From Parasitella parasitica (lineage: Eukaryota; Mucoromycota; Mucoromycetes; Mucorales; Mucoraceae), in contig MU619244.1 in the NCBI GenBank assembly GCA_025201805.1, positions 354,889 to 383,199 on the forward strand: a stretch of 28,311 bases of DNA. Direction: 5' to 3'. Under the pieces are notes generated by a model. The model made no database searches. It saw only the letters and a list, made by a program, of their open reading frames with translations, and was not told the origin of the DNA. How positions within the stretch are numbered: the stretch's first letter is position 1; every line of letters starts with the position of its first letter. Positions 2,543 through 4,932 of this stretch are shown piece by piece. A program made the translations under genes and the position numbers.

Positions 2543-3150
2543 CTACATGAGAATGTGAAAATTACTGTATCGTCTTATTTGTTAACATCGCATTTACCAC
2601 CTCCAAGCTTTGCGAGCTGCTTCATCCATCTCAGGAGTAGAGTTACCACTACTTGACTTGTTGTTCTAAGTTTTTCCGTAAAGGTGCTCATCAATTTTTT
2701 ACACCTTTCTTGAACAGCTTGTCTCTTTAGACTATTTGGTCACTATCTATACTGTTCACATCCTCAGCAACCTTCTCCCGTTGTTGTATTTGTTCACCGT
2801 GGACTACACGACGTGGTCGAAATTTCACATAAGCCCGAAGCAGCTCTAGTGTCGTTGTGCTTGTCCATACACCTCTCTACATTAATGCAACGAGGAGTCT
2901 TGTTTGCCTTCACTGTTGTTATCAACACATGGCTACTGGTTCCTGATCTTTGACGTTTTCTTCTGCCATCAGTTTCATTATGTTGAGGGTCTATTCAATA
3001 AAACTTGCTTTTGTTTTGTTCATTTTAGGGCACATATTGTTGATTTTTGCTTTTAGTAGAGAAAAGACGGCTTGAATACAATTTTTCATCAAAATTTTGG
3101 CCTAAACCCAAAATTTTATAAATTGCAACATTTCATACCATTTTGTTATA

Positions 3151-3313
3151 CACCTTTTCTCAAAATGATGTCGCACAATAAAAATTTAAGTTGTCGCACT
3201 TTTTTGAAAAAAGATGACGTATTTCCGAGAAAAAAAGTGTCGCACTTTCAAGAAAAAATATGTCGCAATTTTCAGAAAAAAGATGTCGCATTTTCAGGGA
3301 AAAAGATGGCGCA
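3151..3313 (+). repeat. Left TIR: seven units at exact 23-bp spacing
   Basis: TGTCGCA or a near copy starts at 3169, 3192, 3215 (TGACGTA), 3238, 3261, 3284 and 3307 (TGGCGCA), each exactly 23 bp after the last, separated by T-rich/A-rich spacers. The arm ends 12 bp before the transposase stop codon. Confidence 0.9.
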
Positions 3314-3324
3314 TCGCATTTTTA

Positions 3325-4644
3325 TTAAATAGGAAGACAATTCAAACAGTCATCAAAACGTCTCACAGAATAACGAGCGAAGCCTTCGAAGGATGATGGC
3401 AATACACCGTTGCAAGCATCGCCAATCTTAGCAGGAAGCGTGTCTTTCTTGAGAATAAACTCCCTTTTAACACCACTCTTGACAACTGACCAAAATTGTT
3501 CGATTGGATTTAGCTCAGGAGAGTAGGGTGGTAAATAGATACATTTATACCCACGAGACTCAATAGCAACTCTAATCAACTTAGATGTGTGGATGGGAGC
3601 ATTGTCCATCAACAAGTAGTGGCCCTTCATTTCAGGATATTTATCCATCTCTTCGAGAATATCATCAATAAACCTCAGGTAATGGTTAGTTATGGTTCCT
3701 TTTGTTTGTGCTTTAGCCCCTCCTGCTAGCTTTCGTTTTTTGGAAGGGGGTATAGGCTTTCTCAAACAAACCTTGATCAAGCCTTTACTTGATATAGCAC
3801 CCAAGATTGAAATCAAGTTTGCTCTTGCCGTAAGTACCTTCACAATAGCTGGCTCTCCCTTCGGGGCCCATCCCTGAGTTCTTCTCAAATTTGCATTAAA
3901 TCCTGCCTCATCAATGAAGACACAGTTACTCATGTAGTCTACGCCCATATTCTTCATCTCCTCCACCCATTTCTTTCTCGCCTGAATCCTCTCTGGAGTG
4001 TTTCGCTCTAAAGGCTCCAGTTGCACTTTCTTCAAACTTAAAATCCAAAGATCATTCAAATAACGATACAGTGTGGGTTTCGAAAGCGATAAACCCTCAA
4101 AAGTACTAGTCAATCGATCAAGTAGCTGGTCAGCTGTGGCGGTTGGCTGCTTGTAATAAAACTCTGTAACAGCGTTCCTCGTTGCTTCTGCCAATTCACC
4201 TTCTGCTTCAATAATTCTTGGTCGGCCAATAATTTTGAACAAAGAGTCTGGGTCTTTCTTCCAGGTACTATACCACCGTTGTAAACTTCTTGGTTCTAAA
4301 CCCAAATCCAGAGCGACTGCTCTAGCGCTATTCTTTGGGTGTATATCAACCAAGTGAACGGCATGTGCCTTAACTTCATTACTGACTCGTTTGTTCTTGA
4401 TAATGTTATTTTTTGCCTCTTTGGAATCAGTTTTTTTATTTTTGGTAGCTTTGTGTTCCAAAAAGGTTGAATCCTGATCAACTTCCATCATCCCTTTCTC
4501 TCTAGCCTCGATATAAGCGCTATAGGATGCAAGTTCCTCTAACTTGTACGGATCATCATTCCCAGTGATATCCATTGGGTCATTTCCATCCTCATCCAGG
4601 ACATTTCCTTGTCCATCCTCAAAATAAAATGAATAGCTCATCAT
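3325..4644 (-). CDS. Tc1/mariner (IS630-like) transposase, DD34E
   Basis: This single-exon gene encodes 439 residues and starts at the first of two tandem ATG codons (4644). A poorly conserved acidic N-terminus (1-60) is followed by a helix-turn-helix region (about 80-135: VKAHAVHLVD ... SLQRWY), an AT-hook-like GRPR (140-143) and a second HTH-like stretch (about 165-200: TADQLLDRL ... KPTLYRYL). The DDE_3 catalytic domain follows: D245 in FIDEAGF, D347 in LLMDNAPIH, and E382 in SPELNPIEQFW, with 34 residues between the last two, hence DD34E. The enzyme cuts at the TIR ends and inserts at TA. All catalytic residues are present and the frame is intact, so activity is plausible. Its stop lies almost against the left TIR. 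The family call is secure. Confidence 0.95.
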   Translation of the reverse strand: MMSYSFYFEDGQGNVLDEDGNDPMDITGNDDPYKLEELASYSAYIEAREKGMMEVDQDSTFLEHKATKNKKTDSKEAKNNIIKNKRVSNEVKAHAVHLVDIHPKNSARAVALDLGLEPRSLQRWYSTWKKDPDSLFKIIGRPRIIEAEGELAEATRNAVTEFYYKQPTATADQLLDRLTSTFEGLSLSKPTLYRYLNDLWILSLKKVQLEPLERNTPERIQARKKWVEEMKNMGVDYMSNCVFIDEAGFNANLRRTQGWAPKGEPAIVKVLTARANLISILGAISSKGLIKVCLRKPIPPSKKRKLAGGAKAQTKGTITNHYLRFIDDILEEMDKYPEMKGHYLLMDNAPIHTSKLIRVAIESRGYKCIYLPPYSPELNPIEQFWSVVKSGVKREFILKKDTLPAKIGDACNGVLPSSFEGFARYSVRRFDDCLNCLPI

Positions 4645-4682
4645 TGTAAATGTACTTCAAGAAAAAAAAGTACTGAAATTTA

Positions 4683-4846
4683 GGCGACATCTTTTTCCCC
4701 TAAAAATGCGACATCTTTTTTCTGAAAAGTGCGACATATTTTTTCTTGAAAGTGCGACACTTTTTTTCTCGGAAATACGTCATCTTTTTTCAAAAAAGTG
4801 CGACAACTTAAATTTTTATTGTGCGACATCATTTTGAGAAAAGGTG
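4683..4846 (-). repeat. Right TIR: mirrored 23-bp repeat array
   Basis: TGCGACA-type units start at 4822, 4799, 4776 (TACGTCA), 4753, 4730, 4707 and 4683 (GGCGACA). Spacing is 23 bp throughout except the innermost (24 bp, one-base indel). It is the inverse of the left TIR. Confidence 0.9.
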
Positions 4847-4932
4847 TAATATCCTACTTTCTTTAAATGGCAATGTTACATTTTTTTTACAAAAATGGCA
4901 TGATTTTTACAAAAATATTGTAAAAATTTCAA

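What the first reader, a model, noticed from the sequence alone, without database searches (positions are those of the whole stretch)
3151..4846. Tc1-like transposon whose TIRs are built from seven units phased at exactly 23 bp
In the left TIR, TGTCGCA (or a close variant) starts at 3169, 3192, 3215, 3238, 3261, 3284 and 3307, each 23 bp apart. The right TIR mirrors this (4822, 4799, 4776, 4753, 4730, 4707, 4683). Most Tc1/mariner TIRs carry one or two transposase-binding sites per end, so an array of seven, about two helical turns apart, suggests cooperative multimeric binding or a regulatory array. The transposase is intact (D245, D347, E382; DD34E), so the system may be active.
Basis: partly seen in the sequence, partly recalled or inferred. 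Interest (0 to 1): 0.75.

Follow-up and report, generated by a model that had tools for sequence, protein, structure and literature searches.

The report
Jumping gene with 23-base phased ends
A fungal jumping gene has ends built of seven similar short sites spaced 23 bases apart, and distant cousins in the same genome keep nearly that spacing while changing the letters of the sites, which suggests that the transposase lines up along the ends in a regular array.

Summary
The element is 3151-4846 with a TA duplication; two other places in the genome show the matching empty site with one TA. Each TIR (about 163 bp) holds seven TGTCGCA-type cores; 11 of 12 gaps are 23 bp and the innermost right one is 24. 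The transposase (439 aa, D245/D347/E382, open) is IS630/Tc1-type and resembles the published Mucorales element Tc1-MP1, whose 141-bp TIRs were reported with no array in the text I saw.

The new part is in the host genome. In 20 relatives with TIRs (about 16 groups; full-length transposases 32-41% identical to this one), 33 of 40 arms have 22 or 23 bp as strongest period. Core letters differ by group: TGTCGCA, TTGGCGCA, TGGCACA, TTGGTGCA, TTGGGACA, TTTGCGG, TTTGACCA and others. Ends of a second tip class agree: 10 of 19 against 16 of 230 control segments, though only 6 of 19 are significant singly.

Best reading: each unit is one site for a two-HTH transposase, stacked head to tail, so that protein contacts fix the spacing while base recognition drifts. 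Binding was not tested. I call it a new variant of a known kind.

The parts
3149..3150 (.). left copy of the TA target-site duplication
   Evidence: sequence; empty sites at C226 and C1 carry one TA
4847..4848 (.). right copy of the TA target-site duplication
3151..4846 (-). the element, 1,696 bp; strand is that of the transposase
   Evidence: TIRs, TA duplication, empty sites
3151..3312 (+). left TIR with seven phased units; tip CACCTTTTCTCAAAATGA then first core
4684..4846 (-). right TIR with seven phased units
3169..3313 (+). left core array; 7-bp cores at 3169, 3192, 3215 (TGACGTA), 3238, 3261, 3284, 3307 (TGGCGCA)
4683..4828 (-). right core array; cores at 4822, 4799, 4776 (variant), 4753, 4730, 4707, 4683 (variant; gap of 24)
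3325..4644 (-). transposase, 439 aa, single open frame; N-terminal extension 1-83, HTH1 about 89-130, HTH2 about 150-199, RNase H-like domain from about 241; D245, D347, E382

Best explanation
A cut-and-paste IS630/Tc1-type element of the Mucorales Tc1-MP1 kind. Each 22-23 bp unit is one full binding site for the transposase's two-HTH (paired-like) domain: a G/C-bearing 7-bp core read by the first HTH, and a T-tract/GA/A-tract half on its tip side for the linker and second HTH. Several such sites abut head to tail in each TIR, so that monomers stack in a regular nucleoprotein array that marks the end, adds avidity to a short core, and presents the outermost subunit to the TA-CAC tip for pairing and cleavage. 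Spacing is set by protein-protein contact and is conserved, while base recognition drifts from family to family. Shown here: anatomy, phase, borders, open transposase, conserved period with changing cores. Inferred: which HTH reads which half, occupancy of every unit, cooperativity, role in end recognition.
For: Period 22 or 23 is the top lag in 33 of 40 arms of 20 elements, 31 of 40 arms at P<=0.05. Exact core pairs cluster near 23 bp: TGTCGCA 30 of 31 at 22-24; TGGCACA 25 of 36 at 21-23, control 2; TTGGGACA 8 of 12 at 21-23, control 0. Core letters differ by group while units within an element resemble each other. Second tip class: 10 of 19 against 16 of 230 control segments. The tip - T-run - A-run - TGNNNCA order recurs 42 times, control 0. 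The model matches Mos1 over both HTHs and the catalytic domain. Purifying selection on the transposase. In Sleeping Beauty the PAI module reads the core of each DR and RED the adjacent part, and PAI also mediates oligomerization (PMC7827188, passages).
Against: No binding data. Base spacing of 23 bp turns successive sites by about 70 degrees (at 10.5 bp per turn, recalled), so they are not on one face of the helix. Jitter of 21-24 bp occurs inside arrays and some core pairs sit at 15 or 19 bp. ATTTGCG pairs are weak evidence: 5 of 9 at 23, but 6 control matches. Core distance correlates with the DNA-binding domain (rho 0.32) hardly more than with the catalytic domain (0.27), so co-evolution of reader and core is not separated from ancestry. 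In the second tip class only 6 of 19 ends are significant singly.
Confidence: 0.68

Rival explanations
1. Only the outermost unit serves cleavage; the inner units act as an operator through which the transposase represses its own promoter.
For: The right array ends about 40 bp upstream of the ATG at 4644. Bari3 transposase lowers expression from its own left TIR in a reporter assay (PMC4120734, passages).
Against: The array is the same in the left TIR, behind the stop codon, and in the gene-less 213-bp element at C28; a pure operator would not need to be mirrored. TIR symmetry could also be kept by gene conversion, so this is not decisive.
Confidence: 0.15
2. The array is a passive relic of tandem duplication or slippage, without function beyond unit 1.
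For: Tandem units can arise by slippage; unit number varies between elements.
Against: Spacers after a given unit can be matched across families (AATTTAAG after unit 1 in 4 of 6 arms), so units are old, yet cores are more alike than spacers (478 of 550 against 968 of 1379 comparisons identical; core columns were picked by motif, so only indicative). The period is held across about 16 groups.
Confidence: 0.08
3. The repeats act through DNA structure or RNA: A/T tracts that exclude nucleosomes, or TIR hairpin RNA feeding 21-25 nt small RNAs.
For: T- and A-tracts recur in each unit; long TIRs could pair if transcribed (inference).
Against: The G/C core, not the tract, carries most of the information and has family-specific letters.
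Confidence: 0.05

Closest known systems
Tc1-MP1 of Mucor piriformis (PMC9977792; section 5 read in full, other passages)
   Same: DD34E, 434 aa against 439, 1,688 bp against 1,696, TIRs of 141 bp (the same length as those of the C127 relative), Mucorales hosts
   Different: No internal array is mentioned: no hit in the main text for tandem, binding site, periodic, subterminal or direct repeat. Its supplementary sequence was not seen, so it may have one
Sleeping Beauty IR/DR ends (PMC7827188, passages)
   Same: Several sites per TIR for a two-HTH transposase; core plus flanking half; oligomer assembly
   Different: Two separated DRs per TIR of about 220 bp, not abutting units
Bari1/Bari3 (PMC4120734, passages)
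   Same: Three DRs per end; in Bari1 all three are bound by the transposase
   Different: Three sites against seven; a phased contiguous array is not mentioned in the passages seen
Galileo (PMC3688188, abstract and discussion)
   Same: Repeated transposase-binding sites in long TIRs, proposed to supply specificity and higher-order multimers
   Different: P-element superfamily, THAP domain, sites tens to hundreds of bp apart
Tn7-like ends, ShCAST TnsB (PMC9371665, passages)
   Same: Multiple 22-bp transposase sites per end; the first two overlap by 1 bp
   Different: Four unevenly and asymmetrically placed sites per end; bacterial; other protein architecture
Bacterial IS630 (NCBIfam NF033545)
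   Same: Transposase passes the family cutoff (127.3 bits, cutoff 100)
   Different: Bacterial ends were not examined here

Membership tests
IS630-Tc1-mariner group | DDE/D transposase of this fold | tested here: met
   DDE_3, NCBIfam IS630 above cutoff, Mos1 and Sleeping Beauty structural matches
IS630-Tc1-mariner group | TA target-site duplication | tested here: met
   TA on both sides and single TA at two empty sites
Tc1-MP1 clade of Mucorales | DD34E, about 430-440 aa, TIRs of 140-170 bp, Mucorales relatives | tested here: met
   compared with the text of PMC9977792
Tc1-MP1 clade of Mucorales | Direct sequence similarity to Tc1-MP1 | not tested
   Its sequence was not fetched; the paper lists Parasitella, Rhizopus and Mucor homologs, genera that also appear
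Tc1 in the strict (animal) sense, or Gambol | Placement inside that clade on a tree | not tested
   No reference set for Tc1 or Gambol was at hand; sequence hits are to IS630 and weakly to Sleeping Beauty (E 1e-4)
IR/DR group (Sleeping Beauty type) | Two separated direct repeats per TIR, outer and inner | tested here: not met
   Seven contiguous units per TIR
Multi-site transposase-binding ends | Transposase binds each repeat | not testable with these tools
   needs a footprint

The most novel reading that the evidence does not exclude
A large transposon lineage whose ends are read by a regular transposase stack: the 22-23 bp step is fixed by protein contacts and survives deep divergence, while the cores have split into many private recognition codes, so that a dozen or more families live in one genome without moving each other.
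Probability: 0.35. Interest if true: 0.75.

Novelty: new variant of a known kind. Interest (0 to 1): 0.52.

Why it matters
It gives a natural series of about 16 groups in one genome in which site spacing stays and site letters change. That makes two questions testable: how a transposase with a short core finds its own ends, and how new transposon families gain private recognition. It would also extend the range of Tc1-type ends from two or three separated sites to many abutting ones.

Tried and rejected
Array peculiar to one copy: rejected. Exactly 23 bp everywhere: rejected. TGGCACA pairs (36): 11 at 23, 5 at 22, 9 at 21, 1 at 20, 6 at 15, 4 elsewhere (18, 27, 33, 35); control 2. TTGGGACA (12): 4 at 23, 3 at 22, 1 at 21, 4 at 19; control 0. 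ATTTGCG (9): 5 at 23, 4 elsewhere, control 6, so weak.

Specific co-variation of core and DNA-binding domain: 13 elements (3 with partial proteins); rho 0.32 for the DNA-binding domain (Mantel P 0.004), 0.27 for the catalytic domain (P 0.03), 0.47 for the N-terminal extension (55 pairs, P 0.005), so not separable from ancestry. Tip as a 'unit zero': seen in several stacks, not tested, left out of the claim.

Rows dropped: of 30 transposase loci (L009-L038), 21 had flanking inverted repeats in the stretch held and 9 had none (L011, L024, L026, L032, L033, L035-L038); L037/L038 proved to be arms of one large inverted pair. For one search, L021 was dropped as mirror of L020 and L003 stood for L010. 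For the pooled unit table 12 of the 19 stacks were used: L016, L017, L025, L030 left out as near copies, L020, L027, L028 because their phase is not comparable; units were chosen by likeness to a named core.

Second tip class: 20 of 38 places were fetched, before any period was computed for them, but I had seen relatives of some: L096 has the tip of L028, and L080, L086, L088, L090 and L093 resemble L029/L034. They were made distinct only among themselves, without gaps; L079 and L097 look like one array shifted by a deletion, so a strict count is 9 of 18. Of 10 further tips, all of families already seen, 5 have top lag 22 or 23 and one 44; L104's period comes from another 22-bp tandem repeat further in, and L107 had no tip at the expected place. 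One search counts only G/C matches, unlike.

Viral contigs: 2 pattern matches, no relative. DNA of other Mucorales could not be reached. Ten paper searches (listings) showed no description of such arrays in Mucorales elements; that library lacks most closed papers. Other papers seen in passages only: PMC7386202, PMC7928374, PMC4905642.

Full report
What is there. The window holds a 1,696-bp element at 3151-4846 flanked by TA. Its arms are 98% complementary over 156 bp ungapped and 97.6% over 165 columns with one gap. Two places elsewhere in the genome (C226 and C1) carry the same flanks without the element and with one TA, so borders and duplication are shown. A second copy at C5 (99% over 821 bp) runs into an assembly gap.

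The array. Seven cores per arm, TGTCGCA or a variant (4 of 14), lie 23 bp apart; the one exception in 12 gaps is the innermost right gap of 24. Lag 23 is the strongest period in both arms and none of 500 shuffles reaches it. In the 30.7-Mb genome the exact pair of cores at spacings of 17-32 bp occurs 31 times against 1 for the control; 24 of 31 are at 23 bp.

Relatives. A search found 108 matches in the genome, a lower bound because 96 of 461 candidates were scored. Of 30 loci fetched, 21 had flanking inverted repeats. For 20 elements (L021 left out as mirror of L020; L003 used for L010) the top lag is 22 or 23 in 33 of 40 arms, two more have 45, and 31 of 40 arms reach P<=0.05. The arms without it include both of L003, one of L023, one of L025 and one of L031. 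Close pairs (L014/L017, L015/L016, L018/L030, L023/L025) leave about 16 groups.

Letters change, phase stays. The stacks show group cores such as TGTCGCA, TTGGCGCA, AGTTCGCA, TGGCACA, TTGGTGCA, TTGGGACA, TGAGACA, TTTGCGG, ATTCGCG, TTTGCCCA, TTTGACCA and TCAAGCA. Units of one element mostly carry its group's core, in both arms. Most chains have five to eight units; they run from 3 to 11, the longest taking in weak units beyond the TIR. Pooled over 12 families, the middle core columns lose much of their information (column 6 from 1.76 to 0.45 bits) while C at column 7 stays high (2.33 to 1.85); the spacer has a weak T-tract, GA and A-tract. Those units were chosen by likeness to a named core, which inflates core values; the lag test is free of that choice.

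A second tip class. TACAGTGCNTCC has 40 matches (38 places) and 0 control. I fetched 20 of the 38. Of 19 distinct ends, 10 have top lag 22 or 23 against 16 of 230 genomic control segments (Fisher P 1.3e-6); singly, 6 of 19 reach P<=0.05. Two of the 10 (L079, L097) look like one array shifted by a deletion, and several are kin of elements already seen, so this is a partly independent test. This class peaks at 22. Of 10 more CAC-type ends, all of families already seen, 5 have top lag 22 or 23, one of them owing to another repeat.

Age of the units. In six arms of the TGTCGCA group, core columns are 87% identical (478 of 550 comparisons) and others 70% (968 of 1379); core columns were picked by motif, so this is indicative only. 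The spacer after unit 1 keeps AATTTAAG in 4 of 6 arms, so units can be matched by number across families, which speaks against recent tandem duplication.

Mechanism. Sleeping Beauty's PAI module reads the core of each DR and RED the adjacent part (PMC7827188, passages). The same order fits here: tip, T/A-tract half, core. A pattern of tip, T-run, A-run and TGNNNCA has 42 matches and 0 control. I infer one transposase per unit, stacked head to tail. A 7-bp core alone is too common in 30.7 Mb to mark an end (inference); repeated sites would supply specificity, as proposed for Galileo (PMC3688188, abstract and discussion). A 213-bp element at C28 consists of two four-core arms (gaps 21, 23, 15) with tips and TA and no gene; it is alone in this search, so it shows that gene-less arrays exist, not that they move.

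What is not shown. No binding, cooperativity or activity. Core distance correlates with distance in the DNA-binding domain (0.32), the catalytic domain (0.27) and the N-terminal extension (0.47), so co-evolution is not separated from ancestry. All DNA evidence comes from one genome.

Known or new. Tc1-MP1 is the published reference for this kind of element: DD34E, 434 aa, 141-bp TIRs (PMC9977792, section 5 read in full). Its main text has no hit for tandem, binding site, periodic, subterminal or direct repeat; its supplementary sequence was not seen. Known relatives with several sites per end have two (Sleeping Beauty) or three (Bari). So the element is a new member of a known clade, and the phased array, spacing kept and letters changed, is a new variant of a known kind of transposon end.

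Noticed in passing
G000 C46:210854-217180 (L020, L071, L021): Two identical-looking transposase genes in inverted orientation inside 2.16-kb arms (99.8%) around a 2-kb middle; both outer ends are TACAGTGC tips, as if the pair were one 6.3-kb composite element.
   Followed up: partly
G000 C128:46182-52771 (L037, L073, L038): 2.4-kb inverted arms (99.9%), each with a 463-aa transposase and a 115-aa ORF without Pfam match, around a 1.8-kb middle with a 239-aa ORF; outer ends read TACTGTTTTTTG with TTTGCG cores about 22 bp apart.
   Followed up: partly
G000 C30:245022-251141 (L023, L072, L025); also C25, C66 and C46:167-177 kb by position: Further transposase pairs in inverted orientation 3-9 kb apart; in C30 the arms are 99.3% identical over 1,490 bp. 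The C25, C66 and second C46 pairs were seen only as coordinates.
   Followed up: partly
G000 C105:41263-48385 (L075): Matching tips and TIR arms (77% over 125 bp) 7.1 kb apart, with ORFs between that are not transposase, one with a sub-cutoff C2H2 zinc-finger hit: possibly a cargo-bearing element.
   Followed up: partly
window 3325-4644, residues 1-66: A conserved N-terminal extension (EDGxGNxxDExG, then a predicted strand and a helix 41-66) precedes HTH1 in 11 of the 12 aligned proteins (L037 differs) and is outside the Mos1 match; a candidate contact surface between stacked subunits.
   Followed up: no
G000 C28:206695-206907 (L077) and C92:34675-34939 (L093): Two gene-less miniature elements, 213 bp and 265 bp, made of little but TIR; the C92 one has unlike inner parts (83 of 132 arm positions alike).
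   Followed up: partly
L104 (G000 C207:14050-14326): A separate 22-bp tandem repeat, unrelated in sequence to the cores, starts inside the end of a TGTCGCA element.
   Followed up: no
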